64,000 nt of DNA from Methanosaeta sp. PtaU1.Bin112 (GTDB taxonomy: Archaea; Halobacteriota; Methanosarcinia; Methanotrichales; Methanotrichaceae). Positions 7,843 through 64,000 of the stretch are shown here, one piece after another (position 1 is the stretch's first letter; every line of letters starts with the position of its first letter). The stretch covers positions 1-64,000 of the forward strand of contig MVRL01000148.1 of assembly GCA_002067705.1 (NCBI GenBank), read 5' to 3'. Under the pieces are notes generated by a model, which saw only the letters and a list, made by a program, of their open reading frames with translations, was not told where the DNA came from and searched no databases. The translations under genes and the position numbers were made by a program.

Positions 7843-8054
7843 GCGGATGCTATCGAGAAAGCGATGGAAAAAAATATAGCTAAGCAGATTTAACATCTCA
7901 ATGGCAGAAAAAGAAGAATCATCTACTGATACTCAGATTTAATAGGGATTTAGCAGGTTACTAGGAATGCTCATCCATCTTACGAAAAAGAAAAGCTGAT
8001 ATAAAGAAACAAGGATAGCGAAGGCATTAACAGTCTCATGCGGATGTTTTGAAT

Positions 8055-8663: not shown

Positions 8664-8970
8664 AACGTTTTCTTTTGACAGCTCTTCATTAGATCTCGTC
8701 CCGTCCTCACGCTTTCGAGCACATCCGGCCTTGCCGCCATCATCGTCTCCGCGCCCTCTCAGGCAGCCTCAGTGCCGTCCACCGGGCCTTCGTTCATAGC
8801 ATCAATAGGATCTCGTAGACAACAAAGCTCATGGGCTTTCCTTGCAGTTTCAAAATCCGCTCTGGGGCGTACATACCAAGTTTTTGCATCTGGATCTGCT
8901 TGCATGATCTACCATCTCATGGCTCTTTTTCTCGATGCCGTACATACACATTCGACATTAAATGCAGAAA
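8664..8970. other. Intergenic region without a supported gene
   Basis: About 300 bases between pncA and the repeat protein. Short open frames here lack ribosome binding sites and family-like sequence. The only recognisable element is the TATA box at its right end. Confidence 0.5.
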
Positions 8971-8971
8971 A

Positions 8972-8978
8972 TATAAAT
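8972..8978 (+). promoter_or_regulatory. TATA box for the propeller-like repeat protein
   Basis: TATAAAT lies 23-29 bases before the ATG at 9001. With the usual archaeal spacing the transcript would start at or next to the ATG, giving a leaderless mRNA. No ribosome binding site precedes the ATG, which agrees. Confidence 0.55.
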
Positions 8979-9000
8979 AGTAACAATTCTTATTATTATT

Positions 9001-10071
9001 ATGCTCCAAGAGGTTTATGCTCCTGCTCTGACTAAATGCACAAATGGAGACTTTGTAGTCATTGTCCCGGAATTTGCATCGAGGCGTTATGGCATCCAGC
9101 TAAGGTGCTATTGGAAAAATAATAAGACGGCTGGTGCACCTTGGGAAATGAAAGATCTCTTCGGAAATGATGTCACATCGGCTCCCGCGTTGATTCAGAG
9201 CAGTGAACCGAAAACTGATGGCCGCTTAGAGGTTGTGGTTCGTGAAAAAGGAAATGTTTTAAGACATTACTGGTGCAATCCTATTTTTAAAGAAGGCCAA
9301 GATTGGCAGTGGCAACAAGGAGATAAATTTGCTGAAAATGTCAAATCAAAACCCGCGATTGTTGAAAACCCGAACAACCGCAACATCGAGGTTGTATTTT
9401 GGGGCGTCAGCATGCTTGAAAAGCAGAAATATCAGCCTGATGTGCTACAGCAATGGTGGGGCGATAAAGCTTCTTGCCCTTCTGCTTGTCCTAAGTGGAA
9501 GCCGGGACTTTCCTCTTTTGGGGTAGACGTTGCTTCGGGTCCCTCAATGATCTATAGCACATATGGCAACTATGAAATCGTTTATTGCGATAGCAATTCT
9601 AAAATCAGGTTACTGTGGATACCAGTTGGCTTTCAAATGTGGCAGGAAGTTGGAAAACCTTTTGGAGAGAACATAGCCTCGGATCCTGTATTAATTCAGA
9701 GTGACCTAGACAATGGAACCAAGAACTTTGAAGTGATGTACCGTGATAATTTTGGCCAGTTAAGACATTGGTACCGAGATAACAATGATCCCAAAAAGCC
9801 ATGGAATCCAATACGTTCTCCTGAGAAAAGGCCAATCTGTATTGGAAATAATGTCCTGTCAGGCCCTTCATTGATCACGAGTGGAAAAGGCAACAAGGGC
9901 AACTTCGATGTTGTGGTCGTTGAGGCTTCGGACTCCTCTAATGGATATCTGATGCACTATTGGCGAGACAATGATGACCCTATTTGTAAAAAAATTCTAA
10001 TAGTTTGTCCTCCGAAATGTCCATACTGGAAATCAGAAATTATTGGGAAGTTGCCAACCATAACTTACTGA
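9001..10071 (+). CDS. Repeat protein resembling PLL-type beta-propeller lectins
   Basis: The 356-residue protein has no signal peptide. It consists of six visible repeats of about 50-60 residues, each with a core like FEVVxRExxGxLRHYWRDN, a Trp-rich turn, FGxNVxSxPxLI and a short linker. Clear copies include LRCYWKNN, VLRHYWCNP, LRHWYRDNNDP and LMHYWRDNDDP. This pattern fits the PLL/PHL fucose-binding seven-bladed propeller family or related DUF346-like repeats. The N-terminal YAPALTKC and C-terminal LPTITY could close the last blade. Ligand and cellular role are unknown. It stands alone, near IS debris, and may have been acquired by transfer. Confidence 0.6.
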   Translation: MLQEVYAPALTKCTNGDFVVIVPEFASRRYGIQLRCYWKNNKTAGAPWEMKDLFGNDVTSAPALIQSSEPKTDGRLEVVVREKGNVLRHYWCNPIFKEGQDWQWQQGDKFAENVKSKPAIVENPNNRNIEVVFWGVSMLEKQKYQPDVLQQWWGDKASCPSACPKWKPGLSSFGVDVASGPSMIYSTYGNYEIVYCDSNSKIRLLWIPVGFQMWQEVGKPFGENIASDPVLIQSDLDNGTKNFEVMYRDNFGQLRHWYRDNNDPKKPWNPIRSPEKRPICIGNNVLSGPSLITSGKGNKGNFDVVVVEASDSSNGYLMHYWRDNDDPICKKILIVCPPKCPYWKSEIIGKLPTITY

Positions 10072-49722: not shown

Positions 49723-50304
49723 ATGGTAATGAGGCTGTTGGGTGGAAGCCATCGAGATGAAGATGAGACCATCGGGACGCAGGATCTGCCCCCTGCAAGG
49801 CATAGCTCTTTATTGTCCGGCGCAAAAGGATACCTCTGGAAGGACGGAAAGATGCTGAAGCGTGCCAGGATTTTAGCCGATTATCAGTTTGGCCGGGGAG
49901 CGGGCGAGGCCCTCTTTCCCGAGGGTACAACCTACAGCCTCTCCAAGACGCGCCGGCTGAGGTACCTCTACACCGGAAAGGAGAGGATCGCCACAGTTCG
50001 AGCCAGCGACAACCTCTTGACCCTCAGCATGCTGGGCGCGGGAAGGCTGCATGCCTTTTTGCCAAGCCCACGCCTCAGGGTGGTGGCCTGCGAGGATGCC
50101 GCGCCGTTTGTCTCCAAAGGCGGCAACCTCTTCGCCAAGCACGTCCTGAGCGTGGATGAAGAGATCAGGGCAGGGGAGGAGGTGCTGGTCGTGGACGCCC
50201 GGGACCGGCTTCTGGCCACGGGGACGGCAGTGCTTTCCCCGGAGGAGATGCTGCAGATCAAGCGCGGCATCGCGGTGGCGGCAAGAAAGGCTGCGGAGCA
50301 CTGA
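49723..50304 (+). CDS. PUA domain protein (ArcTGT C2-PUA type)
   Basis: The 193-residue protein has a C-terminal PUA domain (about 120-190): PRLRVVACEDAAPFVSKGGNL, FAKHVLSVDEEIRAGEEVLV and LLATGTAVLSPEEM. The preceding part (RARILADYQFGRGAGEALFP) resembles the C-terminal domains of archaeal tRNA-guanine transglycosylase. It lacks the catalytic barrel and probably assists RNA modification or binds tRNA/rRNA. Confidence 0.8.
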   Translation: MVMRLLGGSHRDEDETIGTQDLPPARHSSLLSGAKGYLWKDGKMLKRARILADYQFGRGAGEALFPEGTTYSLSKTRRLRYLYTGKERIATVRASDNLLTLSMLGAGRLHAFLPSPRLRVVACEDAAPFVSKGGNLFAKHVLSVDEEIRAGEEVLVVDARDRLLATGTAVLSPEEMLQIKRGIAVAARKAAEH

Positions 50305-50309
50305 TCACT

Positions 50310-50456
50310 TCACATTAAATTGACGATTAGGCTTCCACAGACAGTCAGCAGCACATTGGCGAAAGCATATGGAGCGGCATAGCCCAATGCCGCCAGAGGG
50401 CTGTCGGATCCCTCAATGATCACATATGCGGAACGCTGCTTATTTTGCTCCGGCAT
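50310..50456 (-). CDS. Small membrane protein of 48 residues
   Basis: An ATG at 50456 has a strong AGGAGG 6 bases upstream and a TATA-like TTTATAAA near 50491-50498. The 48-residue product has a polar N-terminus, then EGSDSPLAALGYAAPYAFAN and a hydrophobic end VLLTVCGSLIVNL. The hydrophobic part recalls the last membrane helix of AspT-like transporters, but here it has its own promoter and ribosome site. Function unknown. Confidence 0.55.
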   Translation of the reverse strand: MPEQNKQRSAYVIIEGSDSPLAALGYAAPYAFANVLLTVCGSLIVNLM

Positions 50457-50489
50457 ATCTTCCTCCTGCTTATGTTATGTACCAGGTCA

Positions 50490-50500
50490 TTTTATAAATT
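50490..50500 (-). promoter_or_regulatory. TATA-like element of the small membrane protein gene
   Basis: TTTATAAATT on the plus strand (AATTTATAAA on the minus strand) lies about 35-44 bases before the ATG at 50456, leaving room for the AGGAGG ribosome site in the leader. Confidence 0.45.
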
Positions 50501-50675
50501 ATATTTGCTTGTTTGACATGATCCTTACGTTTGAAGGGAGACGTGCGGGATGCGGGATGCTGAGAATAAAAGTCAGACCACCTGCAAGTTCAAATTAGGT
50601 GGCTGCTCGGACCGATCGATATCCAGTGAACCGATGGGTCCAAATTCACCGAACTGCTTCAATAAACATTATCAG

Positions 50676-50695
50676 AAAAAAATTTTAAAAAATTC
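50676..50695 (-). terminator. Poly-T terminator of the injection-system operon
   Basis: The minus strand has two T-runs (opposite A-tracts 50676-50682 and 50687-50692) beginning about 25 bases after the last stop codon of the baseplate operon. This is a typical archaeal termination signal. Confidence 0.5.
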
Positions 50696-50716
50696 TCTTG
50701 CATGGCAGAAACTTCG

Positions 50717-51553
50717 TCATCTCATCGTACCTAAGATGCTCAAATCCAGTACAACATTTGCGATTAGAGATGTATCTGACTTTAAAATAAGAGGCTCATG
50801 TCCCTTGTGAATGATTTTTCCCTTCTTGGAGGAAACTGTCAAGTATGTCTCTATCTTTCTCAACCTCCCCAACTTGTCAATGGTTCCCGAGTCTATCTGA
50901 ATGGCATAGTAACCTGAAGCATCCGTTTCGCCGGCTAATGACCTGAACTCATCTCCTTTCCCGCTTTCAATAAAAACTCTGAGTCCTTTTATTCCCCGAT
51001 ATGACTTACCCGTCACTCGTCCATGCAAGAGAGTGCCGCCTTCCGGTATCTCAGGTACATGGATTTTTGCAAGTTCTGCTTTGACCTCCAGATCCTCAAC
51101 GATGCTCAGATTTTGCTTCAGGCGCGTCTCCATCTGCAGAACCCGCATGTGGTCAGCACCAAGCTTTTTCTTCAGCCGCAGAGCCTCTGCCTGAAGCAGA
51201 GTCTGTTTGATTGCCTGCAGGTCTTTGAAGTCTTTCAATAACGAATTGAAGAGACGGCATTCATCCCCCTTAGATGTGTATTGATCTTGTTCCCCAGGCA
51301 GAGAGTTCAGCCAGCATCCGACCGCGTATTTTATATCTGCATCACTATTATAAATAAATTTTAGGCAAACATCCTCCTCTTGGGAACTCATTGAAGTCTG
51401 ATTTGGTTCTTTGATCAGTTTTGCGCCGCTTCTGGCAACGATGCAGTTATCACCCTGATTGTGAACCGTGATGTTCAGCTTCGAACTTACTGCCAACAGA
51501 GAAAGTCTCCTTGAATCCAAACTTAGCTCGGCCATCGATCTCATCTCCCGCAT
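50717..51553 (-). CDS. Unknown protein with Ig-like domain, end of baseplate operon
   Basis: About 278 residues from the ATG at 51553, 8 bases after the beta-helix gene stop; the frame is open to 51628. The middle is a long helical, charged stretch (about 110-170, with ALRLKKKLGADHMRVLQMET). The C-terminal 90 residues (GGTLLHGRVTGKSYRGIKGLRV and GETDASGYYAIQIDSG) match carboxypeptidase-regulatory-type beta-sandwich domains. It lies last in the contractile-system operon; it may be a chaperone, fibre attachment or cargo protein (inference). Confidence 0.65.
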   Translation of the reverse strand: MREMRSMAELSLDSRRLSLLAVSSKLNITVHNQGDNCIVARSGAKLIKEPNQTSMSSQEEDVCLKFIYNSDADIKYAVGCWLNSLPGEQDQYTSKGDECRLFNSLLKDFKDLQAIKQTLLQAEALRLKKKLGADHMRVLQMETRLKQNLSIVEDLEVKAELAKIHVPEIPEGGTLLHGRVTGKSYRGIKGLRVFIESGKGDEFRSLAGETDASGYYAIQIDSGTIDKLGRLRKIETYLTVSSKKGKIIHKGHEPLILKSDTSLIANVVLDLSILGTMR

Positions 51554-51561
51554 CAAATCCG

Positions 51562-54500
51562 CTACATCACTTTTGCAAAGATAGTTGCATTCTCTCTGAA
51601 GCGATTGTTTGCTGCTCGCAGATAGCATGCCATCAGCATTGTATTCACTCTTAATATCCCGCCAGTGGCCATTACTTCCGAATAATTCGCATGAAACTCC
51701 AAATCATCTTTTGTGGCAATGAATTGCGAGGTGACGCCGATCAGATCTGCCCCAAAACGAATTTGGTTATTGCTAAACATGATATTTCCTTTGGTGAAGT
51801 CGAGGGGGCTCAGTTTGGTTTTGCCACTCATCAAGCCATCCAGAGATGCCTCCCCTCCCCAATCAGTGATGAATACCACACCCGCGCAATCTTCTATCCG
51901 GCCAAGAAGAGATCCCTTCACCTGGTTGGCATTGCTGGAAAAATCCGTTCTGAACTGGTTATTCAATACAGAGACAGGTCCCAACGCATTCATGATAAGA
52001 GCATGTCCAACCGGCTGCCTAATCACATTTTCATGTATTTGGGCAGCATATCCACCCAGATCAGAGATGAATTCAATGACAGATCTTAAAGGACTGTCTG
52101 CACTAGATGCGAACCTTGACATATCGATGTTCATCGGCGTGTATATGACCTGCCTCAAGACCAAGCCCCCCCTGAATCCAGGATGCAGATCGAGGATGGC
52201 CTCATCGCCAATGGTAACATCAATTGGCCCATTATCTGAAATCTTGTTGCGGCTGATATCTACCTGACTTGCAGCGGAGATAAAGATGCCGCAAACTGGA
52301 TCGCGGTGATCCCGGCCATTGCTCAGGATGCGATTCTCGCAAATTGATACGTTTTCGCAAAGGCCCAAGGAGATGCCCCCTTCACCCCTCAGCATCACCA
52401 GATTTCGCATTGATTTACTCAGGAGGGTATTATTAGAGATGTCAAATATATTTCGTAAGCACTCATGTATATCATTATTGCAGATGGCGAGATCTTCAAC
52501 AATTCCGCTCAGAATACCATATCCGGTGATATATTTGATCAGAGAATCATCTGATGTCGAGAGAGCCGTGAGCAAATTTTTTTGTGGAGTTCCAATTCCT
52601 GAAAGCCCCATATATGAGATCTCATTTTCTTCAATCCTGATGCCGTAAATAGTGGCCAGGATATCCGCGAGTTCTTTTTCGCCAGAGCTGCCATCGGTTT
52701 CGAGATAACTTCCCAGGGTGATGCCATTGCCCCAACCTCCCCGGATATAATTGCGGCTCACTTTAACGCGTTCACAGCCGCTGGCGATTTGTATCCCTCC
52801 ATGCGCTCTAAAAGGATTTCTTATCTTCGATGAATCACTGGAGGACTGCATAATGCTATTCATCAGATATGCCACCTGGACTCGTTCTTCTATTGCATCT
52901 GCATTCTCATTGCATTCATCAATCAGTTCTTCACCTCCAACATCACCAATAGCACCTCGGCCAGCGGCAACAGCTCCGGCTGGAATAACAATGACCATAT
53001 TATCATCGATTGAGCTATCACAGGCATGGATAGATATGGCTGTATCACCGCCAAACCTATCCAGCATAAAGATCTTATTATTGTGAATACCGACCCAGGA
53101 GGGTACTCTTTCGCTTAAGCCCTGCCCTGCCGCAGTTGAGCCAACTTCAATGGCATGCTTGTACGCCAGGATGTAGCTATCCTTGATCTCTACATGCTGG
53201 CAGCCTTCCACTTCTATTGCAGTGCCTCCTGGCTTGGACAGCGTCATATTCTCCAGTGTGACCACCATGGAGCCAGATATGCGGAAGAGGGGAACTTCGG
53301 CATTCTTGGATCTGGACAAGACCCATGTCTTCAGTCCGCAGCCCCGGATGGTTAGGTTGGTCATCCCGCTGATTACTGCGTCGGTTAAATGCATCCCCGG
53401 CAGCAGACAGATCTCTCCGCCCAATATCCCCCTCCACCTGGATTTATCGGCGATCTTCTCCAGTGCCTCTTCGATTGTACTGCAATCTCCGCCTTCGCCC
53501 ACTGTATAACGGCAACATAACTTCTTGCTTGTCAGCGGCCCAAAAACCCGCCGGCAATCACTTATGGATAATGGCGTTCCCCACTGCAATATGGCCAGAG
53601 GCACCCGGTGATAATGAATGCCCTGTGGCGGCTGATCCCATATCAGAGGCGATGGGTTGCCTATTTCTCCCGCCCGGACTGAGAAGGTCCAGTAGTCTTC
53701 CGGCAGATAGATGGTGTTATCTGCCGGCGGACTGAATTTCAGATTGATTCCGTCACACAATTCTTCTTCGTGGATATACTCAGTAACCTTTTCAATGCCA
53801 TCCCATAGACGGAAAAATACATTTCCAAATGGCATCTCATGATAAAGGCGCACTTCCCGAACCTTCAAAATCCCTTTATCCAAGGTCACTTCAGCGCCAA
53901 AAATGACATGCCAATACCGTTCATTTACTTCCTGAATTATTTCCATGTAAAAGCTATCCCGTTCTAAGCTGGTGATGGCTTGAATATTTCCGGTAATGGT
54001 GATTGTAGCCATGGAAGGGTCTCCGCCAGGGCCGCTCTGGAAATCCCCTCTGCCCACCAATCCGCCGTTGAATTTGGAATATTTAAAATAGGGCGAATCA
54101 TCGTCGTCAACCTCGGCCATCTCGATTCGGTAGAGGCAATGCTCAAATCCGAGATAGCCTCCCTTCTCAGATTGGGGACATTCGTCGTCGCTCTCATTTG
54201 GCGATCGGAGAGTGACAGTCAACTTGCCCCACCCGGAAAGATCATCCTTTAGATCGGCCAGGATATTCTCACAATCCCGATCTGGCCCCACCCGCAGCAG
54301 CTTCAAATCAAAGGCCGTGTGAACTCTCTCCGTGGTGTCAGGTCCACCCAGCGCGGGTTCGATCAGCTCATCAGGCATCTGAAATCCATTGATCTCCTCC
54401 CGCCAGACCTCCAGGATCACTGCAGCTTTGTCATCGCTATTGCTTTCGAGAGGCTCAGGCGGATTGAGGTATGAAATGATCTCCTCCTTCAGGTGAACCA

Positions 54501-54780
54501 GCAGACCATCTGCCCAGATCCGACCGGGCGATAAGGTGACTTTAACTTGGCCGTTGCTCATGACCTCGGCATTTGCTACCTTGAATGAGTCCCGCTCCTC
54601 GGCCGGTACCGCAGCCACACCAGGCCCAAATGCGTCCCTGGCTGCCTCATCCTGCCAGTTATTGGTGATCTGGGTCTGGGCGTTCCAGTCGGAATCGAGA
54701 AGAACCCGGCCCTGCTGGTGCAGCACGCCGTTGAAGTTGTCTTCCGAGCTGTGCAACCATCTTGAGAAATCTCCCTTCAT
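51562..54780 (-). CDS. DUF6519 / right-handed beta-helix protein of the injection system
   Basis: The protein of about 1072 residues starts with MKGDFSRWLHSSEDNFNGVL and GRVLLDSDWNAQTQI, the DUF6519 signature found next to baseplate genes of phage-tail-like systems. The ATG at 54780 matches the family start and has GGTGGAG 8 bases upstream. Residues about 1-420 form the DUF6519 part. Residues about 440-1050 are a parallel beta-helix rich in NNKI/ENRI turn repeats (SICENRILSNG, DISRNKISDNG). Beta-helices of this kind build tail spikes and receptor-binding fibres. No enzyme motif seen. Confidence 0.8.
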   Translation of the reverse strand: MKGDFSRWLHSSEDNFNGVLHQQGRVLLDSDWNAQTQITNNWQDEAARDAFGPGVAAVPAEERDSFKVANAEVMSNGQVKVTLSPGRIWADGLLVHLKEEIISYLNPPEPLESNSDDKAAVILEVWREEINGFQMPDELIEPALGGPDTTERVHTAFDLKLLRVGPDRDCENILADLKDDLSGWGKLTVTLRSPNESDDECPQSEKGGYLGFEHCLYRIEMAEVDDDDSPYFKYSKFNGGLVGRGDFQSGPGGDPSMATITITGNIQAITSLERDSFYMEIIQEVNERYWHVIFGAEVTLDKGILKVREVRLYHEMPFGNVFFRLWDGIEKVTEYIHEEELCDGINLKFSPPADNTIYLPEDYWTFSVRAGEIGNPSPLIWDQPPQGIHYHRVPLAILQWGTPLSISDCRRVFGPLTSKKLCCRYTVGEGGDCSTIEEALEKIADKSRWRGILGGEICLLPGMHLTDAVISGMTNLTIRGCGLKTWVLSRSKNAEVPLFRISGSMVVTLENMTLSKPGGTAIEVEGCQHVEIKDSYILAYKHAIEVGSTAAGQGLSERVPSWVGIHNNKIFMLDRFGGDTAISIHACDSSIDDNMVIVIPAGAVAAGRGAIGDVGGEELIDECNENADAIEERVQVAYLMNSIMQSSSDSSKIRNPFRAHGGIQIASGCERVKVSRNYIRGGWGNGITLGSYLETDGSSGEKELADILATIYGIRIEENEISYMGLSGIGTPQKNLLTALSTSDDSLIKYITGYGILSGIVEDLAICNNDIHECLRNIFDISNNTLLSKSMRNLVMLRGEGGISLGLCENVSICENRILSNGRDHRDPVCGIFISAASQVDISRNKISDNGPIDVTIGDEAILDLHPGFRGGLVLRQVIYTPMNIDMSRFASSADSPLRSVIEFISDLGGYAAQIHENVIRQPVGHALIMNALGPVSVLNNQFRTDFSSNANQVKGSLLGRIEDCAGVVFITDWGGEASLDGLMSGKTKLSPLDFTKGNIMFSNNQIRFGADLIGVTSQFIATKDDLEFHANYSEVMATGGILRVNTMLMACYLRAANNRFRENATIFAKVM

Positions 54781-54792
54781 TTCCATCTCCAC

Positions 54793-57141
54793 CTATGTAA
54801 CAGGTATCAGCAGCGGCCTCACCCCAACGGGCATGAACTCGCGATAGCGAATCTGCAGGTTGCGCCACTTATGTGCTTGCATGAGAAAGCCAAAGGCTCC
54901 CATGGCGTCCTCCTCCGGCCCCCGTTCTCTGATGCGGTAGTCCGCTGTATGTGCCAACTGGCCATAGCCTGGCTCACCGAACACTTCGCTGACGAAGTGC
55001 AGCCGCGCATGGCTTCCAGTGACGCAAGCATGGTTTGGGGGCAGGCGGTCTCCCCGGTCTGAGAAATAGCAGTACTTGAGGCAGCCAACCTGATTGTTCC
55101 GCACCTGCAGCGAATTCGCCCAGATGCCGCCTTTGCCACTTATGCTCTCAACACGCATCCGGCCGAAGACCGTGGCACCTTCCACCTTAGTTGGAGAACC
55201 CCAGCCGCAGGCCAGCTCACCGTCTGCTGGATCATCAGGGCCGGCAACGGCAAATTCGGCTTCTGAATCAGGACCGGCATCTATAATGGTCTGTTCCAGC
55301 TTCAGATGATAGCCTCTACCGATACGGATCGATCCTGAGATTGTGCACCTGATCACTATCTCTGGAGACTGATCGAAGGCATCTTCCGCCTCGGTATCAT
55401 CAAATCCATAGGATTCCTCCAATCGCATGGCCGTGTAGCTTGGCGCTCTTGTACCATTGAGCTGCCTGGATCCACCCGGATCAAGGGTACAGTTTACGAT
55501 CTCCAGACGGTCAACGGCCGCCCGGGCAATCAGCGGCATTCTCTCATCGACCTCGTAATCAACATCTTCAAACCGGGTCAGAAAGAGCCCTTCCAGTCTA
55601 ACGATCAGACCCGCGGCCTTGGCGGCATCCTTCGGGCCGAAACGCAGGGGATGTTTGAGCTTGATGATGGGCCTCTGGCCATCCGCGGCGCGTATGAGCA
55701 GGGGCCGGCTTAGCAGTAGATCAGGCACACCCTCATGAATTGGGATTCCATCTCCGCGGTCAAATCCAAGTACATGAATCAGACTATCTCTGATCTCGAT
55801 TATGACAGGTCCAGCTGCATCCAAAGCCTCCAGGATAGCCTGCTTTAAACTGGATGAGGAGGCGTCAAAGCCGCTGACGATGATAATCCTAGAATCCTCA
55901 TCCCACGGCTCAAGGGAGGGAGACCGCGCGGCTGGATGCGCGCCAACCGGACCGGCCGCCCCATAGGTGTAGGTCACCAGCAAGTGATCCTTGAGAGCTA
56001 AAGCTTGCTCATCACTGGAAATCCCTATCAACAGCCGGCCTAAAACGGGATCAACCACAAGCTCCCGGTCTTTAACTCCAGATGCCAGACCCTCTTCCCA
56101 ACAGCGCAGGTCGGCGCCTCTTACCGTCCAGGCGCTTGAGCCGTCATCTGGCCATGATGAGCCGGCAAAGGCTGTTGCTGGCAGATGAAGCTGCAGACCG
56201 ACATCGGAGATATCCCTGGTGGCAATCTCGGTATTGATTGGATTATATGTATCGATGGACAGGTACTTCTCAGGCCTTCCCGCTGCAGAGTTCTCAGTCA
56301 ATCTGGGTGCAGGAATCGGGCCGGGGGTGGCATCGATCTCGGTTACCAGAGGAGGCTGCCGGAGGGGGTCGAACTGATAGGTATTAAAAAGATGGACTGG
56401 ACGTCCCAGCGGGTCGATATCAAATCGGACAATGCAAGCTGCAGCATCGGGATCCTCGGATGGTGCAGGACTTATAGTTATAGTCTCCCGCCAGCATGGC
56501 CTTGTAGCTCTGACCTGATAGCCCTCCAATCTCCACAGAAAGATGGCCAGGTTGGGCAGGTTGTAGCGTATACCCCTCCAGGCAGGCGGTTTTATATCTG
56601 CGAGATGGGCGAAGGGATCAAAAGGCGTGCCCAGCAGGCTGAGCATGGCCGGATCGCGTAGGTTGACCGTGCCTCCAAAGATGGGGGTGAAGCGATTGAC
56701 AGACGGCTGACTGTATGGCGGTGCTCCTCCCACATCAGGTCGCTGGTGGTTCAGATGCTGGTTCCAGACCAGATTCTCTCGCAACTGTACACAATGCACT
56801 CCCCACCCGGTGAGGTCATATGTCAATCGCTCAATGCTTGCCAGTGTGCCTTTGCGGCGGCGAAGGCTGATAGCATCGGCCACCTCAGCCCTTAAGGTCC
56901 AGGCATCGCCGCTGATATGACCGACACCGAGGAGATCGCCGATGTAAGGAACCACCCAGTCATCACAGGTCTCTATGAACAGGTCATGGTACAGGGCCTC
57001 GATATTGCGGTGAATCTCATCCAAGACACCTTCCACCAGCGCCAGATAACTCTTGAGCTGTCCAGGAGGCTGCTGCGTCTCATCCCGGATCCGGTAGATC
57101 TCTGGCAGCCGCTCGTAAAGGGAAATGCGTCTCTCAGTCAT
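54793..57141 (-). CDS. gpI-like baseplate/tail protein with long C-terminal extension
   Basis: The 782-residue protein has an N-terminal tail-protein-I-like domain (about 1-160): SLYERLPEIYRIRDE, YDLFIETCDDWVVPYIGDLLG, and RRRKGTLASIERLTYDLTGW. This is the pattern of TIGR02242-type tail proteins. Residues about 350-780 are beta-rich with repeat-like segments (VIRCTISGSIRIGRGYHLKL), perhaps a beta-helix or spike. GGAGGTG precedes the ATG, which overlaps the previous gene by 8 bases. It likely links baseplate to fibre. Confidence 0.82.
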   Translation of the reverse strand: MTERRISLYERLPEIYRIRDETQQPPGQLKSYLALVEGVLDEIHRNIEALYHDLFIETCDDWVVPYIGDLLGVGHISGDAWTLRAEVADAISLRRRKGTLASIERLTYDLTGWGVHCVQLRENLVWNQHLNHQRPDVGGAPPYSQPSVNRFTPIFGGTVNLRDPAMLSLLGTPFDPFAHLADIKPPAWRGIRYNLPNLAIFLWRLEGYQVRATRPCWRETITISPAPSEDPDAAACIVRFDIDPLGRPVHLFNTYQFDPLRQPPLVTEIDATPGPIPAPRLTENSAAGRPEKYLSIDTYNPINTEIATRDISDVGLQLHLPATAFAGSSWPDDGSSAWTVRGADLRCWEEGLASGVKDRELVVDPVLGRLLIGISSDEQALALKDHLLVTYTYGAAGPVGAHPAARSPSLEPWDEDSRIIIVSGFDASSSSLKQAILEALDAAGPVIIEIRDSLIHVLGFDRGDGIPIHEGVPDLLLSRPLLIRAADGQRPIIKLKHPLRFGPKDAAKAAGLIVRLEGLFLTRFEDVDYEVDERMPLIARAAVDRLEIVNCTLDPGGSRQLNGTRAPSYTAMRLEESYGFDDTEAEDAFDQSPEIVIRCTISGSIRIGRGYHLKLEQTIIDAGPDSEAEFAVAGPDDPADGELACGWGSPTKVEGATVFGRMRVESISGKGGIWANSLQVRNNQVGCLKYCYFSDRGDRLPPNHACVTGSHARLHFVSEVFGEPGYGQLAHTADYRIRERGPEEDAMGAFGFLMQAHKWRNLQIRYREFMPVGVRPLLIPVT

Positions 57142-59755
57142 TGAGGGGCACCTCCGTCGGGCTTACTGAGACCGGGTGCAAATGGCAATCGGACGCATTC
57201 AGGCAGAGAAGCGAATGTTCGTGGCATTCTACCTTATCTGTATGATATATTATTCCCAGCTTCAATCTGAATATTGAGACCTTCACCCAGACTACGCCTT
57301 TGATATTCTGAACAGCTCCCTTGATGCGAGTGGCATGCTCCAGCTGGCCAAACCGCCGGTTCTGAGAAGCAAAAAGGCCATGCGATCCATCGATCCCCTC
57401 GTCCTCACCTCCCGAGACACCCAATGCCTCCTTGATCGACTTTTGCAGAAGCTGCCATTGATACGATGGGTCGTACCCCACCTCCAGGTCAAGCTTCACC
57501 AGTTGCCGATGGCCTGGAGCGACTATGATCGCGAAACGCTTTGCCCCCCGATCCTGATCCGCCTGGATGAGTATGCCTCTTGCCTCCTCGTACTCCTTCT
57601 CCCTGCCGCTCTCCATCAGAACTGTGATCACCACCGCCGGGACATTGTTATTAAGCGCCCAGCGGGCCTTTGCCTTGGCGACCCCGGCGATGGACAGGGC
57701 TTCCGCCTCGAAGTCCTGCAGGCTGACCAGCCTTCCCAGGCTCTGGACCTTTCCAGGTGCGGCCTGCCTGGCCTTCTCTCCGCTCTCGGGCAGGTCGCCT
57801 CCGGTGACGATTCCAGGAAGGTGGATCTTTTGCAGATGGTTAAGCCGGGCACCGGCCTGAACTGTCGTTCCTTCCTTGAGCGGACCGAATGCTCCTGTGC
57901 CCGTTCGGTAGCCGGCCACGACGTTCTGGAAGCCGGAGGGCAGCCTTGAGCCAGCCTTGCCGTCTCCGAACTGCACCCAGCTATTCCCCTCTGAGTCCTC
58001 CCGGATGATGTAGATCTCCTCTTTGGGCCCATGGCCAAAGAAGAAGGGCACTCTCGTCCAGAGCCTGCCGCTGACAAACACCTCCAGCTCCGGGACTTCA
58101 GGAGGAGTCTGTTCCCCGGACCGGAAGTAGGTCAGGGGCGATTTAGGAAGTTTGAAGGTCTGAAACATCTCCCGGCTGTCCCCGCTGCCCAGCACGGCTT
58201 GCTTTTCGGTCTTGCCCTGGGTGGCTTGGACCAGGTTACCGTAGACAATGGCCCGGGGGTCTTCTTCATTGAAATCTGACAGCGAAAATCCTTCCAGGGG
58301 TCTATCGAGATAGACGGGCCATAACCAGGGATTGATTGTGTCTTTATCCTTGAGCGCCTCCTCGAATATCCTCATACTGTTTGTCACACTAATCTGTTGA
58401 GATTCAGCTCCCTCTTTTTGCAGTATTAGGCTCCTTCCTTGCAGCTTCAAGGCTTGATCATAAGTTCCCCAATAGTTGAGAGTATTCCCGATCGCGGATT
58501 CGCTTTCCCACTCCGTTCCAGCACGAAGAATCATCTCAGGCCCTTTTACTTCATGAAAACTCATTTTTCGGATGTTAGCGCGCTCTGGCAACCTAACAAG
58601 AGGCTCATCAAGCGTAATAACCGATGATGAACCAGAGAGATTGCCCCAGCATAAAGCATCAGATCTGATATCGACAATTCTCCTCAGTTCCGTAAGAGAG
58701 TCTTCACCTGGGATCACATGTTCGGAACCATCAACATCAACGGCGGTCATAGTATAGGGCAGGAAGAATTGGCAGACAATTGCATTTCCTGTCGCAAGAT
58801 CATCGACTATTGCGTCCAAAGGCATCTCAGAGGGGCTCAGGTTGCAATAGCCTTCATAACCCGCAGATAACGATCTATTGAAATCCGTATCATTCTGGCT
58901 TATTCGACGCCCAGATCCCAGCAGCCTGGTTGTTAGAGCCGGTGCGTTATAGCCAAAATGACGAAAAGTACGACCAATGCGATGAGCCTCTACAGCGAAA
59001 CCATAATGTTCTTTTCTCAGAGATCCCTCGAACTCGATGATAATGCGATCGAGCACCCGCCTAACCTCAGACACGATGAGAATTTCTCCCGAGGGAATGA
59101 GTATGATGCGATCGCCAGCCATGAGCTTTAGCGCCAATTTGCTGGCAATGTCTGTCTTGACCTCATCGTCTTCAGAGACGACGGATTCCACCTCCAGACG
59201 ATTGCTCCCCTTTGCTATCCGTTGACCTTCGGCACGGGGACGATAAAGGTTAAACTTGGACAAGCCTGGATAGGCCACTATTTCGGCTGCCCCCTGGAAA
59301 TCCACCTGGACCTCAGAACCCTCAACTTGAGCCTTGATTGGAAATCCTTTGGGAATGACTACAGGCTTATCTCCCTTCACCTCAAATGCAAACGTGGCCT
59401 TGCCACCCACACCTGGAGATAACCGATATCCCAAGAGTCGCACCAGATCCCCGATGCTCTCCCGCCACTCTGCGGTTCGCAGATAGGCTTCATTGGCGTA
59501 AAGCTCCTGGTAAAATGTCAGTATATCGCCCAGGATGGATGCCCCCTCCAGCAGGGCGATGCCAGGATCATCCGCCTCCCTGTGGGTCCAATTTATCAAT
59601 ACTGGATCTAGATTCAGCTGTCTCAGCAGTGCTTCCCGGATATCAGCGTACGTCCCAATGCGGTAGTCGATATGGGATAGGCCGGGTCGGTTCTCTGGTC
59701 GTTTCGGAAACGATTTAAGAGCCGTGCAGTCATTGCGGCATTCATCATCGCTCAC
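57134..59755 (-). CDS. Baseplate J-like protein 2
   Basis: The 873-residue protein has the wedge-protein pattern: IDYRIGTYADIREALLRQL, DDPGIALLEGASILGDILTFYQELYANEAYL (about 63-92) and RLLGYRLSPGVGGKATFAF. The later Baseplate_J part has SWVQFGDGKAGSRLPSG and KVQSLGRLVSLQDFEAEALS. It matches Afp12/gp7-like or TIGR02243 proteins that form the baseplate wedge. The GTG start at 59755 overlaps the stop of the previous gene and has GGAGGTGG upstream. Confidence 0.88.
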   Translation of the reverse strand: MSDDECRNDCTALKSFPKRPENRPGLSHIDYRIGTYADIREALLRQLNLDPVLINWTHREADDPGIALLEGASILGDILTFYQELYANEAYLRTAEWRESIGDLVRLLGYRLSPGVGGKATFAFEVKGDKPVVIPKGFPIKAQVEGSEVQVDFQGAAEIVAYPGLSKFNLYRPRAEGQRIAKGSNRLEVESVVSEDDEVKTDIASKLALKLMAGDRIILIPSGEILIVSEVRRVLDRIIIEFEGSLRKEHYGFAVEAHRIGRTFRHFGYNAPALTTRLLGSGRRISQNDTDFNRSLSAGYEGYCNLSPSEMPLDAIVDDLATGNAIVCQFFLPYTMTAVDVDGSEHVIPGEDSLTELRRIVDIRSDALCWGNLSGSSSVITLDEPLVRLPERANIRKMSFHEVKGPEMILRAGTEWESESAIGNTLNYWGTYDQALKLQGRSLILQKEGAESQQISVTNSMRIFEEALKDKDTINPWLWPVYLDRPLEGFSLSDFNEEDPRAIVYGNLVQATQGKTEKQAVLGSGDSREMFQTFKLPKSPLTYFRSGEQTPPEVPELEVFVSGRLWTRVPFFFGHGPKEEIYIIREDSEGNSWVQFGDGKAGSRLPSGFQNVVAGYRTGTGAFGPLKEGTTVQAGARLNHLQKIHLPGIVTGGDLPESGEKARQAAPGKVQSLGRLVSLQDFEAEALSIAGVAKAKARWALNNNVPAVVITVLMESGREKEYEEARGILIQADQDRGAKRFAIIVAPGHRQLVKLDLEVGYDPSYQWQLLQKSIKEALGVSGGEDEGIDGSHGLFASQNRRFGQLEHATRIKGAVQNIKGVVWVKVSIFRLKLGIIYHTDKVECHEHSLLCLNASDCHLHPVSVSPTEVPLND

Positions 59756-62349
59756 TTCCGGCCACCTCCGATAACGAAGGTCATGAATCCATCCTCCATG
59801 TGATCCGGATCGTTTCGGACCCTGATGATCTCGTTGGAGCGCAGCTCAGCGATCTCCTCTCTTCCAATAGCATCCTCGTTCCAGCGTTTTATTGTTACGG
59901 AGACAACGTGATCTATGCCCTTGATCTGCTGGATGCGGCCGATGATCTGGCTGGAGTGCAGCCCCTGCCCGAAGCTCCAGCGATCTGGATGAAAGAATGC
60001 CCGCCTGCCATCTGGGGTATAGCCTTCGGAGAACTCCTGCCCCAGAATGAATCGTATGTCTTCTGTCCAGTAATCCTGATGGACGCAGAGTGTGACCTTG
60101 ATATCCAGAGGCACAAAACTGGGGCCACGAATCTCCAAATCCTCGCCGATCAATCCCACCGCCTGCAAATGGCCGGCTACCTCATCCCGCAGTTCGTCTG
60201 AGAGCTCCGCCGTGCCTGCTGGGTCTACTGCCACCTGCACCGTTCGCCAGCTTCCTGTCCAGGCGTATCGGGCCGCGGCCCTGGCAACTTCTGGCAGCTC
60301 TTGGGCCCGGTTCTCATAATCCTGCAGCGTCACCGCCCGCAGCTGGCGTGATCTGTATGCCTCGGGAGCCCGGCGGATGATATCGGCAGCTGGTTCAGGT
60401 GCCCTACCATTGACAACATCGAACGGATTCCAGACAGACTGGATCTCCGGATAGATCGATGTATCGAAATACCTCAGGGCACCAGCACCGATATTTCCGT
60501 CCAGACCATGGCCCAACTGACAGAAGCAATGTACCTCTGCTCCTTCCGGCAGCTTCCTGCCGTTGTCATCATTGCCGAAGCGAAGCAGGCTCATGCCCGC
60601 TTCATCCGTCTCCACAAGGAAATGATCGCCCCCTTCGGCGCTGCCATCACTGTGCACAAGACTGATGACCTCTTCCCAGGGATCTGATTCCCCGGCAGAG
60701 ACCACTTCCACTTTAAGGGTGGACCTGGGAGGGACCTCGCCGCCCAAAGGCGTATCTCGATAGGAGAGAGGGGCTTGCGGCAATCGGCAGACCGTCCCCC
60801 CGCGATCGGTCATTTCATAATGCAGTTCGTCTTCTGACAGCAGGGGCTCATCCGGATCTTTGAATATGGCATGCAACGGCCATCCGTGGCAGACCGCAAT
60901 CAAGTTACCATGAAACAGGGAGATGTTCTCGTGCTTTCCATCCGGACAGGAGACGGTAAAACAATAATTGGCCCTCAGGGCATCTTCCTCTCGCCATCGC
61001 ACCCTCACGAACCATGCCCCTGCGACGGGATCTCTCAGGGATTCAGCCCCCTGAACCCCGGAAAGCAACCTCAGAAGTTGACGCTTGCCCGGATCGCTCC
61101 CTGCCCCAAGGCCAGTCGCCGGATTGAGCCACTCCTGAATCAGCAGATGCTGGACCTTTCCGGAGCGAATCAAGTCCCGCACTTCATTTATCGAGATTTC
61201 ATCAATCAGAGGCAGCCCGCTGGCATCAAGCGGCTGCAGATCTGCCGTGCTGGAGCCGGCTGCCAGTGATGGAATCGAGCCATCCCAGGTATACAGAGCA
61301 AGCCTGTTGAGAAGGGGATAAAGGTGGGGAGAATAGACAAATAATTTATTAAGAATTTTCTTAATTAAATAAATCTTTCCTTCGGTCTCATCCAAGATGG
61401 CCCATTCATCGCGCTCATTTCGCTTCTCGATTCTGGCTGATGGTGAAAGCCCAATATCATGTGCTGCGAAGACCTCTCTCAGATCCTCCGACAGGTTTCC
61501 GCCTGAAGGGTCAAATTGGTCCAGGATTTCCTTGAATTCGAGATCAAGGGCAAAGGAATGATCCCTGTCAGCCATAAATACGGCTGACGATGCAACCTGA
61601 GTCTCACCTCCCGTCCAGATCATAAAACCGGTGGGCAGGCCGATTGATGCCGTGCCGCTAATCTCCAATGCCAGCCAGGTGCTGGCCTGATTGCCCTGAT
61701 GAATGTGGTAATCCATCAGCCGGGCATGACGTGCCAGCGAGACCCTCTTTCGAGCCGTGAATAGATAGGCCTCATTCATCACCCGGTCCTGATAATCGCT
61801 TAGTTCGTCGGCTGCTGCAGAAAATAGCTCTATAAGGACTTGATCCAGATCGGCCTCGCTGCTGGGCAGCCATCCCGGCACGCGCTGTTCCATGGCGGCG
61901 ATCAAGGTGTGCTTGAAGGAATGATAGTCCTTGGCCAGATAATCGATCGCCGGATTGTCCTGGGGTGGTGGTGCCGGTTCCCATTCCGGGGCACAGTCTA
62001 TCCTGAAGCAGCCAGGCCGGAACTTGAAATCGATCTTGCCGAAGAGAGGATCGATGCTGAATCTCGTATCCTCGGGATTTATGGCCAGCGTATATGTAGA
62101 GTAGTCACCAATAGGGCTGACAGTGAGATTCAGCACCGGCTGCTGGCTATCCAGATCGCTGGCTGCAGTGACCCGCACCTGCCCTGGTTCGCTGCCTGCA
62201 GGCAGTCGCCTTCCTCCCTTGATGGGGAAGAGGTGGCAGGATGCCGGGGGACCTCGACTGGCGAGAGAAATGAATCCTTCAAAAAATATTCTATTGAAGA
62301 AGTGGACTTCAAGTATGGCCTCCTCTCCATCTATGCTCACCAGCAGCAT
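59752..62349 (-). CDS. Baseplate J-like protein 1
   Basis: At least 865 residues. After an N-terminal domain come IDYLAKDYHSFKHTLIAAME, a DQVLIELFSAAADELSDYQD segment and RLMDYHIHQGNQAS. The J domain has SLLRFGNDDNGRKLPEGAEV and RQLRAVTLQDYENRAQELP. It matches Afp11/gp6-like or TIGR02243 wedge proteins. The frame is open and family-like (EHNGIRMLLVSIDG) for 26 codons above the first ATG, up to 62427, but there is no ATG, GTG or TTG in that part. Either the start is non-standard or a base is missing. Confidence 0.88.
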   Translation of the reverse strand: MLLVSIDGEEAILEVHFFNRIFFEGFISLASRGPPASCHLFPIKGGRRLPAGSEPGQVRVTAASDLDSQQPVLNLTVSPIGDYSTYTLAINPEDTRFSIDPLFGKIDFKFRPGCFRIDCAPEWEPAPPPQDNPAIDYLAKDYHSFKHTLIAAMEQRVPGWLPSSEADLDQVLIELFSAAADELSDYQDRVMNEAYLFTARKRVSLARHARLMDYHIHQGNQASTWLALEISGTASIGLPTGFMIWTGGETQVASSAVFMADRDHSFALDLEFKEILDQFDPSGGNLSEDLREVFAAHDIGLSPSARIEKRNERDEWAILDETEGKIYLIKKILNKLFVYSPHLYPLLNRLALYTWDGSIPSLAAGSSTADLQPLDASGLPLIDEISINEVRDLIRSGKVQHLLIQEWLNPATGLGAGSDPGKRQLLRLLSGVQGAESLRDPVAGAWFVRVRWREEDALRANYCFTVSCPDGKHENISLFHGNLIAVCHGWPLHAIFKDPDEPLLSEDELHYEMTDRGGTVCRLPQAPLSYRDTPLGGEVPPRSTLKVEVVSAGESDPWEEVISLVHSDGSAEGGDHFLVETDEAGMSLLRFGNDDNGRKLPEGAEVHCFCQLGHGLDGNIGAGALRYFDTSIYPEIQSVWNPFDVVNGRAPEPAADIIRRAPEAYRSRQLRAVTLQDYENRAQELPEVARAAARYAWTGSWRTVQVAVDPAGTAELSDELRDEVAGHLQAVGLIGEDLEIRGPSFVPLDIKVTLCVHQDYWTEDIRFILGQEFSEGYTPDGRRAFFHPDRWSFGQGLHSSQIIGRIQQIKGIDHVVSVTIKRWNEDAIGREEIAELRSNEIIRVRNDPDHMEDGFMTFVIGGGRK

Positions 62350-62410
62350 CCTGATGCCGTTATGCTCTGTCGAGCCGTACAGAGCCGTTGCTCTCTCTTC
62401 GAGCGCCTCT

Positions 62411-62803
62411 TCATCGATTATCGTCGCTCAATCCCCTCTGAAAGCTAACCACTCTGCTCTCTTCGGATCCCGGCAAGCGGTACTTGATCTCTATGTCTAT
62501 GGTCTCCTCATGCACATCCACCGTCAGAGCCTGAAGTGCCAGTCTGTGGCCCAGCCAGCGAGATATGGCATTGGTGAGCATAGATCTGGTCACGCTCTGG
62601 GTGGCCTCGTTTACGCCCTCAAAGACCAGCCGTCTGGCTCCACCTCCGAACTGCGGCAGAAAGAGCCTCTCTCCAGGACTGGTAAGCAGCAACTGAACCA
62701 GCTCATCGCGGACATGCTCCTCTTGAGACATGACCTGCTCGGTCCGGCCGGACGGCCCTATGCGAAAGGGGAATGATAGATGCCTGCCTTCACGCGGATT
62801 CAT
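62411..62803 (-). CDS. gp25-like baseplate wedge protein
   Basis: About 130 residues from the ATG at 62803, which overlaps the PAAR-like gene stop by four bases (ATGA). The gp25/GPW lysozyme-like fold is seen in HLSFPFRIGPSGRT, VRDELVQLLLTSPGERLFLPQFGGGARRLVFEG and ISRWLGHRLALQALTVD. gp25 anchors the wedge and initiates sheath assembly in contractile systems. The longer frame to 62875 overlaps the upstream gene and is not favoured. Confidence 0.9.
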   Translation of the reverse strand: MNPREGRHLSFPFRIGPSGRTEQVMSQEEHVRDELVQLLLTSPGERLFLPQFGGGARRLVFEGVNEATQSVTRSMLTNAISRWLGHRLALQALTVDVHEETIDIEIKYRLPGSEESRVVSFQRGLSDDNR

Positions 62804-63132
62804 TGTCCTGATGCCCTCTGCTGTGTATTCACCACTATTGCCACTCCCTGTACGCTCCCGGCAGCATTGAGGCACTGGCCTATGCTTGTTTCCACCAGGG
62901 TGGCAGTCCTATCTATGGAGACCCGGCCCGTGCCCGACTGCCACTCGATCCTGACGCAGGGAGAGTAGCTACTTCCAACTGTAAATGGGCAGCCTGTTAC
63001 CGGATGAACGTCCGACTCCAAGAGCACCTTCGATCCATCCGCAAAGACCGCCCTATTGGCCGTTGACAGCAGCGCCCTCCCACCATGTGGGCAGATCACA
63101 GTGCTCGAAGTGGTCAGCTGGCGGCCTGGCAT
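62800..63132 (-). CDS. PAAR-like spike-tip protein
   Basis: About 110 residues from the ATG at 63132, with GAGGTGA upstream and the ATG overlapping the gpV stop by one base (TGATG). The sequence has CPHGGRALLSTANRAVFADG, TGCPFTVGSSYSPCVRIEW and a Cys pair, as in PAAR-like/DUF4280 tips of contractile systems. The tip sharpens the spike and may bind a metal. Identification rests partly on its place between gpV and gp25. Confidence 0.7.
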   Translation of the reverse strand: MPGRQLTTSSTVICPHGGRALLSTANRAVFADGSKVLLESDVHPVTGCPFTVGSSYSPCVRIEWQSGTGRVSIDRTATLVETSIGQCLNAAGSVQGVAIVVNTQQRASGQ

Positions 63133-63692
63133 CACTTCACCTCAAAGGCTCCATTGTTGATATTCACGCTGCCGCTCTTAGAGAGAACAATCTGGGCAGA
63201 GCCGATCTTCAGGGTGATATCGTTCTCGGTCATTGTCATCTCTGCTCCCCCAGAGTGCTCTCTTCCCCAGGAGTGCAGTATTCGTACCTGGTTCTGCTCA
63301 TCGTCCAGGATCAGCTTATGGCCGGCGGTGGTCACAAGTGTCCGCACCTGAGGGCTGCCCGGCTCGACAATCTCATCATTCACAAACCAGCAGCCTGTCC
63401 AGATGGGAGAGGAGATGTCGCCTTCCATGAACTCGATCCACACTCCGTCATCCACCTCGGGAAGGACCATAAATCCGTGATCCGGACCGGCGAAAGGCAC
63501 GCAAGGCATGGCCCAGGGTGATAGATCTGTCTCTTCCTCTCCATAGATCTCAGGAACCAAAGCCCTGATCTGTCCCAGGTTCTCTCCCTGGCCCACCTCC
63601 TTGACTATGCCCTGATATTTGCCGAAGTAGCGGCTGCGCATGTATCGAGCGGCTTCAACCAGCAACCTCTCCGTCTCTTGGTCCAGCATCAT
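63132..63692 (-). CDS. gpV-like spike protein (OB-fold)
   Basis: The 186-residue protein has the gp5/gpV N-terminal OB domain: FGKYQGIVKEVGQGENLGQI, SPWAMPCVPFAGPDHGFMVLP and DDGVWIEFMEGDISSPIWTG. A short beta-prism-like C-terminus follows (EMTMTENDITLKIGSAQIVL). It forms the trimeric spike of the baseplate. The start overlaps the stop of the hub gene (ATG 63692 or 63689). Confidence 0.9.
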   Translation of the reverse strand: MMLDQETERLLVEAARYMRSRYFGKYQGIVKEVGQGENLGQIRALVPEIYGEEETDLSPWAMPCVPFAGPDHGFMVLPEVDDGVWIEFMEGDISSPIWTGCWFVNDEIVEPGSPQVRTLVTTAGHKLILDDEQNQVRILHSWGREHSGGAEMTMTENDITLKIGSAQIVLSKSGSVNINNGAFEVK

Positions 63693-64000
63693 CCCACCTG
63701 ATGTCTCAAACTGGCCTGGCTTTCACTGCCTGTCCTGGATTGTGCATTTCGCCTGAGCGTAAAGGATTGAGAGTACATCGACCGGGTTAAAGTGTGGGTG
63801 ACACGGAATATCACATAAGACCCGCTCTCGGCGCTCTCTGACGCCCTCACAGCGACAAGGTGGTAAGGGCGCAGCACACCTCGATAGCAGCCATCGATGG
63901 TCGATCCGCTGGCCTGGAAAGCGTAGCTGGATTCCTCTGCCGTGGCTGAGACTGCCCGGTCCATGCGGCGGCGCATGAAGGGATTGGGCCGCAGAAGCCG
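63689..64000 (-). CDS. gpD-like baseplate hub protein (partial)
   Basis: Only the last 103 residues lie in the window; the gene continues beyond base 64000. GVLRPYHLVAVRASESAESG, YVIFRVTHTLTRSMYSQSF and TLRRNAQS match the C-terminal domain of phage late control protein D (gp27/VgrG hub). It overlaps gpV by a few bases. The rest of the operon (tube, sheath, LysM) would be expected further along. Confidence 0.8.
   Translation of the reverse strand, partial: RLLRPNPFMRRRMDRAVSATAEESSYAFQASGSTIDGCYRGVLRPYHLVAVRASESAESGSYVIFRVTHTLTRSMYSQSFTLRRNAQSRTGSESQASLRHQVG

What the first reader, a model, noticed from the sequence alone, without database searches (positions are those of the whole stretch)
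50717..64000. Archaeal contractile injection system baseplate operon
Nine tightly coupled minus-strand genes encode a gpD-like hub, gpV spike, PAAR-like tip, gp25 wedge, two J proteins, gpI, a DUF6519/beta-helix protein and a terminal unknown. Overlaps at nearly every junction show one operon. Separate gpD and gpV plus DUF6519 differ from the Afp/PVC layout, in which hub and spike are one protein. No capsid, terminase or lysis gene is seen. In a sheathed methanogen such a particle would have to cross or be released through an unusual envelope, so its target and release are open questions.
Basis: partly seen in the sequence, partly recalled or inferred. Interest (0 to 1): 0.88.

Follow-up and report, generated by a model that had tools for sequence, protein, structure and literature searches.

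The report
Bacterial-type injection system in a methanogen
A sheathed methane-making archaeon carries a complete, phage-tail-like protein-injection machine of a known kind (an eCIS), but the whole 30-kilobase gene set was acquired from bacteria and sits between two ordinary archaeal genes, so the reported baseplate operon is real and intact, and its origin is the surprising part.

Summary
In detail: nine minus-strand baseplate genes lie at 50717-64000. Beyond 64000 the contig runs to 71229 and adds the rest of the hub, LysM and CIS_tube proteins, two eCIS_core (DUF4157) effectors and the end of an AAA ATPase. Contig C46 carries the rest of that ATPase, a Pvc16-type cap, tube and contractile sheath. 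It joins in frame by a 9-bp overlap, and its outer end is nifS. The PUA gene at window 49723-50304 and nifS are neighbours in most Methanothrix genomes and on a second contig (C168) of the same MAG. The locus is therefore a bounded ~29.7-kb insert with no capsid, portal or terminase gene: a complete eCIS, not a provirus or remnant. Split hub/spike and DUF6519 are ordinary here: hub and spike are separate in all 83 loci checked, and DUF6519 is the published eBAP5 tail-fibre domain. The new result is origin. Structural genes resemble bacterial loci (42-74% identical to a Pseudomonadota locus), not the other archaeal ones (mostly 25-40%). Trees place it inside an all-bacterial clade; an AU test rejects one archaeal clade (p = 0.0002). 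Verdict: new member of a known kind, with a sharply bounded bacterium-to-archaeon transfer. Particle, target and release are untested.

The parts
63689..64000 (-). baseplate hub (gpD-like), C-terminal part; full gene is contig C148 63689-64831, 380 aa
   Evidence: PHROG 196 baseplate hub 1.6e-4; 51% identical to hub of L074
63132..63692 (-). spike (gpV/VgrG OB-fold domain), 186 aa, a gene separate from the hub
   Evidence: Phage_base_V 6e-21; matches VgrG/Pvc8 C-terminal halves in PDB
62800..63135 (-). PAAR-like spike tip (DUF4280-like), 111 aa
   Evidence: weak DUF4280 match; 68% identical to the ORF at the same position in L074
62411..62875 (-). baseplate wedge gp25, up to 154 aa (start codon uncertain)
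   Evidence: GPW_gp25 6e-14
59752..62349 (-). baseplate J protein 1 (Cis11-like), 865 aa
   Evidence: Baseplate_J, TIGR02243 4e-53; tree
57134..59755 (-). baseplate J protein 2, 873 aa
   Evidence: TIGR02243 4e-45, PHROG 219 baseplate wedge; tree and AU test
54793..57141 (-). baseplate/tail protein gpI (Cis12-like), 782 aa
   Evidence: Tail_P2_I 6e-4, TIGR02242; 61% identical to L074
51562..54792 (-). tail fibre with DUF6519 (eBAP5) attachment domain and beta-helix, 1076 aa; probable target-binding protein
   Evidence: DUF6519 5e-11 and Beta_helix 3e-9; PHROG 2234 tail spike; model resembles polysaccharide lyases and phage tailspikes at low TM-score; eBAP5 in PMC12923769
50717..51628 (-). terminal gene, 303 aa: helical hairpin plus transthyretin/CarboxypepD_reg-like beta-sandwich; marker of this sub-lineage, probably fibre-associated
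   Evidence: homologues in 10 other loci, in those examined directly after the DUF6519 gene, fused to it in L077; model mean pLDDT 70, confident from about residue 130 on
49723..50304 (+). left host flank: TGT_C2/PUA-domain gene, core Methanothrix gene next to which the locus is inserted
   Evidence: Pfam; adjacent to nifS in relatives
50305..50716 (.). left end of the inserted stretch (insert continues past 64000 to contig 71229 and on through C46 1-8761; about 29.7 kb in all)
   Evidence: empty sites of 10-100 bp in relatives and in own contig C168

Best explanation
The region is the 3' part of a complete extracellular-type contractile injection system (eCIS), acquired whole from bacteria and now resident in a Methanothrix chromosome. 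Gene order (contig C46 reversed, then C148 reversed): sheath, tube, gp26-like baseplate protein, 408-aa unknown, Pvc16-type cap, AAA ATPase, two eCIS_core (DUF4157) effectors of 1027 and 484 aa, 126-aa unknown, CIS_tube/Cis7, LysM, hub, spike, PAAR-like tip, gp25, J1, J2, gpI, DUF6519 fibre, 303-aa fibre-associated protein. Shown: gene content, completeness, bounded insertion between two host genes, bacterial ancestry. Inferred from known eCIS: a sheathed tube assembles in the cytoplasm on the baseplate, the ATPase helps load effectors, the beta-helix fibre binds (and may cut) a surface polysaccharide, and sheath contraction drives tube, spike and effectors into the target. The 1027-aa effector ends in a second HExxH site, so it probably acts as a zinc protease. 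With no membrane protein and no lysis gene in the locus, the likeliest mode is a free particle released when the producing cell lyses (about 55%), rather than a membrane-anchored T6SS mode or a purely cytoplasmic one (about 20% each).
For: Completeness: family matches for sheath, tube, cap, ATPase, effectors and baseplate; a second locus of the same order on one contig, C90. Join of C46 and C148: 9-bp overlap, ATPase in frame, aligning without a gap to the L074 ATPase across the join. Insertion site: PUA gene and nifS adjacent in relatives and on C168. Bacterial origin: the 12 closest J1 relatives are all bacterial; J1 tree clade of 13 at 100 with sister L074 at 99; J2 tree the same, AU p = 0.0002 against one archaeal clade; of the 12 structural genes on the L074 contig, L074 is the best hit for 10 and a bacterial locus is best for all 12. 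Residence in the archaeon: codon usage as close to the host as that of other Methanothrix eCIS loci (0.054 against 0.10 for L074). No close phage relative.
Against: The genome is a MAG (99.2% complete, 3.7% contaminated) and holds a second copy of the flank (C168), so a second strain is probably mixed in. The cap gene and the effectors do not resolve bacterial against archaeal affinity. No particle, expression or target evidence exists.
Confidence: 0.87

Rival explanations
1. A membrane-anchored, T6SS-mode system as in Halogeometricum borinquense: it fires from inside the cell on contact and is never released.
For: The sheath's best PDB match is 9ezm, followed by the Streptomyces-type sheaths 8bky and 8bl4; the haloarchaeal CIS, also an archaeal CIS with DUF4157 effectors, works in this mode (PMC11566945).
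Against: The haloarchaeal mode tracks with a six-helix membrane protein beside the cluster; no protein of this locus has a credible transmembrane helix and the next gene upstream is nifS. An anchor elsewhere in the genome was not searched for.
Confidence: 0.2
2. A misbinned or chimeric bacterial contig, so that no archaeon carries it.
For: The genes are bacterial in ancestry, and the MAG has 3.7% contamination.
Against: 50 kb of archaeal genes lie on the same contig, the other end runs into Methanothrix nifS (96-97% identical to relatives), and both ends match the two sides of one known empty site, which would need two independent chimeras; codon usage fits the host.
Confidence: 0.03
3. A provirus or phage tail remnant.
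For: All structural parts are homologous to contractile phage tails.
Against: The insert is bounded by host genes on both sides and no capsid, portal, terminase or integrase was found in it; it has the ATPase, Pvc16 cap and eCIS_core effectors typical of eCIS; phage records give only partial matches at about 30%; the viral contig scan found none.
Confidence: 0.02
4. An intracellular, cytoplasmic CIS that triggers death of the producing cell, as proposed for Streptomyces.
For: No anchor and no lysis gene in the locus; the sheath resembles the Streptomyces-type sheath.
Against: A full DUF6519 beta-helix fibre argues for binding an outside target.
Confidence: 0.2

Closest known systems
Bacterial eCIS loci of the same sub-lineage (e.g. 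L074 Pseudomonadota MAG, L069 Caldithrix, L070 Cyanobacteria, L072/L073 Nitrospira)
   Same: same gene order from hub to 303-aa protein, separate hub and spike, two J proteins, DUF6519 fibre; 42-74% identity to L074
   Different: host is an archaeon; effectors sit between ATPase and Cis7 (as in L074) rather than after the fibre as in several others; the 408-aa and 126-aa proteins have no relative in the loci collected
Methanogen and ANME phage-like protein translocation structures (Methanomethylovorans, ANME; PMC9012536)
   Same: archaeal hosts related to Methanothrix; sheath, baseplate, ATPase, LysM, PAAR-type parts
   Different: ANME-type loci collected here (L091, L094) fall in other clades of the J1 tree, and the window's J1 is only about 31% identical to archaeal ones
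Halogeometricum borinquense archaeal T6SS (PMC11566945)
   Same: archaeal CIS with DUF4157 effectors
   Different: membrane-anchored, with a six-helix putative anchor gene beside the cluster; none found in this locus
Afp/PVC (clade I eCIS)
   Same: contractile tail without head, Pvc16 cap, AAA ATPase, Pvc8-like OB domain
   Different: hub and spike are one protein in Afp8/Pvc8; fibre type differs

Membership tests
eCIS | contractile sheath and gp19-like tube | tested here: met
   PF04984/PF17482 and PF06841 on C46; sheath matches solved CIS sheaths 9ezm and 8bky
eCIS | baseplate: hub, spike, PAAR, gp25, two J proteins, gpI | tested here: met
   PAAR and gpI below Pfam cut-off but positionally conserved
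eCIS | Pvc16-type cap (tail terminator) | tested here: met
   Pvc16_N 5e-32
eCIS | AAA+ ATPase in the operon | tested here: met
   AAA 2e-31, complete after the contig join
eCIS | eCIS_core (DUF4157) effectors | tested here: met
   PF13699 4e-34 and 3e-22; no match in 14 control genomes
eCIS | tail fibre with a baseplate-attachment domain (eBAP) | tested here: met
   DUF6519 = eBAP5
eCIS | no capsid, portal, terminase | tested here: met
   insert bounded on both sides; none found
eCIS | released particle that injects cargo | not testable with these tools
   needs microscopy and assays
T6SS-mode CIS | membrane anchor or membrane complex encoded with the cluster | tested here: not met
   no credible transmembrane helix in any protein of the locus by a Kyte-Doolittle scan; an anchor elsewhere was not searched for
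tailed phage/provirus | head and packaging genes | tested here: not met
   none in the bounded insert; no full-length phage match to J1
Afp/PVC clade I | hub and spike fused (Afp8/Pvc8) | tested here: not met
   separate genes here and in 83 of 83 related loci; OB domain aligns to the C-terminal half of Pvc8

The most novel reading that the evidence does not exclude
A methanogenic archaeon took over an entire bacterial injection machine as one block. Together with three further, phylogenetically distinct eCIS baseplate sets in the same MAG, this would make some Methanothrix among the most heavily armed archaea known, able to use a bacterial weapon type, with its fibre, from behind a protein sheath against bacterial neighbours or syntrophic partners.
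Probability: 0.4. Interest if true: 0.75.

Novelty: new member of a known kind. Interest (0 to 1): 0.52.

Why it matters
Archaeal eCIS are known from genomes, but the only mode shown so far is that of haloarchaea, and transfer between domains has been inferred mainly from incongruent trees. Here a complete system of bacterial descent can be pinned between two archaeal core genes, with the empty allele known from relatives and from the same MAG. That makes it directly testable how such a machine works behind a methanogen's sheath and whom it attacks in methanogenic communities. It also shows that the split hub/spike layout is a lineage trait and not an oddity.

Tried and rejected
The idea that split hub/spike is unusual: rejected, separate in 83 of 83 loci. 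Provirus: rejected (the viral scan used exact patterns of one protein and reaches close relatives only). Contamination or chimera: rejected by the flanks and codon usage. Direct repeats or an integrase at the insert ends: only chance-level 7-9 bp matches and no integrase found. The 303-aa protein by sequence: no solved relative worth trusting; its fold matches are low-TM beta-sandwiches. Hub and 1027-aa effector: no sequence match in the PDB. The 408-aa and 126-aa proteins: no relatives in the collected loci. A weak match of the 1027-aa effector's end to the ATLF metalloprotease family (E 0.027, under cut-off) is recorded only as a hint of a zinc protease. Plasmid records: only distant matches, under 33% identity in the rows shown. 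RNA families and tRNAs in the window: none.
Full report
OBSERVATION. The hub is cut by the window edge.

BEYOND THE WINDOW. The window is the first 64000 bases of contig C148 (71229 bp) of a 3.44-Mb, 200-contig MAG, 99.2% complete, 3.7% contaminated. The genus is Methanothrix: two genomes of the same genus have contigs of 54056 and 15454 bp that equal, in length and in J1 sequence, named Methanothrix records. The remaining 7.2 kb add the rest of the hub (380 aa), LysM (92 aa), a CIS_tube/Cis7-like protein (223 aa), a 126-aa unknown, eCIS_core proteins of 484 and 1027 aa, and the last codons of an AAA ATPase. Contig C46 (9068 bp) carries the rest: nifS C-terminus, sheath (806 aa), tube (163 aa), gp26-like protein (285 aa), 408-aa unknown, Pvc16 cap (438 aa) and the ATPase running off its end. 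The two contigs share a 9-bp end and the ATPase reads through in frame; it aligns to the L074 ATPase without a gap across the join. Contig C90 of the same MAG holds another locus of the same order on one contig.

BOUNDARIES. The PUA/TGT_C2 gene at 49723-50304 and nifS on C46 flank the locus. In most Methanothrix relatives these two genes face each other 10-100 bp apart. The MAG's own contig C168 shows the same empty arrangement at 94% and 89% nucleotide identity, so a second strain is probably present in the bin. The insert is at most about 29.7 kb (C148 50305-71229 plus C46 1-8761 minus 9). No capsid, portal, terminase or integrase was found in it. The same gap holds a methyltransferase-like gene in one relative and a membrane-protein gene in another (names from reading the sequence): it is an insertion-prone spot.

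ORIGIN. A scan of GTDB species genomes with a J1 profile returned bacteria as the 12 closest loci (Pseudomonadota, Calditrichota, Cyanobacteriota, Nitrospirota, Verrucomicrobiota, Acidobacteriota, Planctomycetota), while Methanothrix loci came at about 28-34%. No other of 247 genomes of the phylum has a J1 match at 1e-70. In the J1 tree the locus lies in a 13-row clade, otherwise all bacterial (support 100), with the Pseudomonadota MAG L074 as sister (99). The J2 tree agrees, and holding the archaeal rows together is rejected (AU p 0.0002). Gene by gene, L074 is the best hit for ATPase, Cis7, LysM, hub, spike, PAAR, gp25, J2, gpI and the 303-aa protein, at 42-74% identity, against 25-40% for the best archaeal hit of those that have one. 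For the sheath, tube, gp26-like protein, J1 and the fibre, other bacterial loci are best; the sheath's lead over archaeal loci is small; the cap and the effectors are unresolved. Codon usage is as close to the host as that of other Methanothrix eCIS loci and closer than that of L074, so the locus is resident and ameliorated.

WHAT IS ORDINARY. Hub and spike are separate in all 83 loci that have both, across many phyla. DUF6519 is eBAP5, one of five published fibre attachment domains, often followed by beta-helix folds (PMC12923769). eCIS in methanogens and ANME have been reported (PMC9012536), and a Methanothrix sheath protein was modelled in 2022 (PMC9230969). Geller et al. already noted the propensity of eCIS to move between bacteria and archaea (PMC8213781). 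I found no paper in the library that describes a Methanothrix eCIS.

HOW IT WORKS (inference except where stated). Sheath, tube and baseplate form a spring-loaded syringe. The fibre model has a beta-helix resembling polysaccharide lyases and phage tailspikes (low TM-scores, mean pLDDT 65), so a surface polysaccharide is the likely receptor. The 303-aa protein has a helical hairpin and a beta-sandwich. Its homologues lie directly after the fibre gene in the loci examined and it is fused to the fibre in L077, so it is probably part of the fibre assembly. Both effectors carry the HExxH of eCIS_core, and the 1027-aa one has a second, C-terminal HExxH, suggesting a zinc protease. The 126-aa protein downstream is a candidate immunity or accessory protein, without evidence. 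The locus encodes no credible transmembrane helix, unlike the haloarchaeal clusters with a six-helix anchor (PMC11566945). I therefore favour a free particle released on cell death, at about 55%.

LIMITS. MAG data, no reads, no expression, no particle. Whether all four eCIS baseplate sets belong to one strain is not shown.

Noticed in passing
G000 contigs C90 (L018/L050), C47 (L020/L052), C36 (L049), C70 (L017): Three further J1/J2 baseplate sets and an extra, truncated sheath gene in the same MAG, each J1 in a different clade of the tree; a possible four-system methanogen.
   Followed up: partly
L020:5775-7613 and 7832-9946: DUF4157 proteins of the C47 locus: one ends in an Ntox44 toxin domain, the other carries two PG_binding_1 domains, hinting at bacterial targets.
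   Followed up: partly
L051:197-3484 (contig C146): Orphan 1095-aa protein with two eCIS_core domains near a contig end, away from any structural genes seen.
   Followed up: no
L168:1-518 (contig C168): Empty PUA-nifS site in the same MAG, 94% and 89% identical to the flanks of the filled site; a second strain is probably binned in.
   Followed up: yes
L177, L173: The PUA-nifS gap holds other single genes in relatives (a methyltransferase-like gene, a membrane protein): an insertion-prone site.
   Followed up: partly
G001, G006, G013, G022, G034 (L060-L066): A second CIS layout in the class (cap-sheath-tube-tube-LysM-hub-spike-gp25-J-J-gpI) in which the scan found no ATPase or DUF4157 gene within the stretches fetched.
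   Followed up: no
window 50310-50459 (-): 49-codon remnant resembling the C-terminus of an Asp-Al_Ex permease at the left end of the insert (E 0.007, under cut-off).
   Followed up: no
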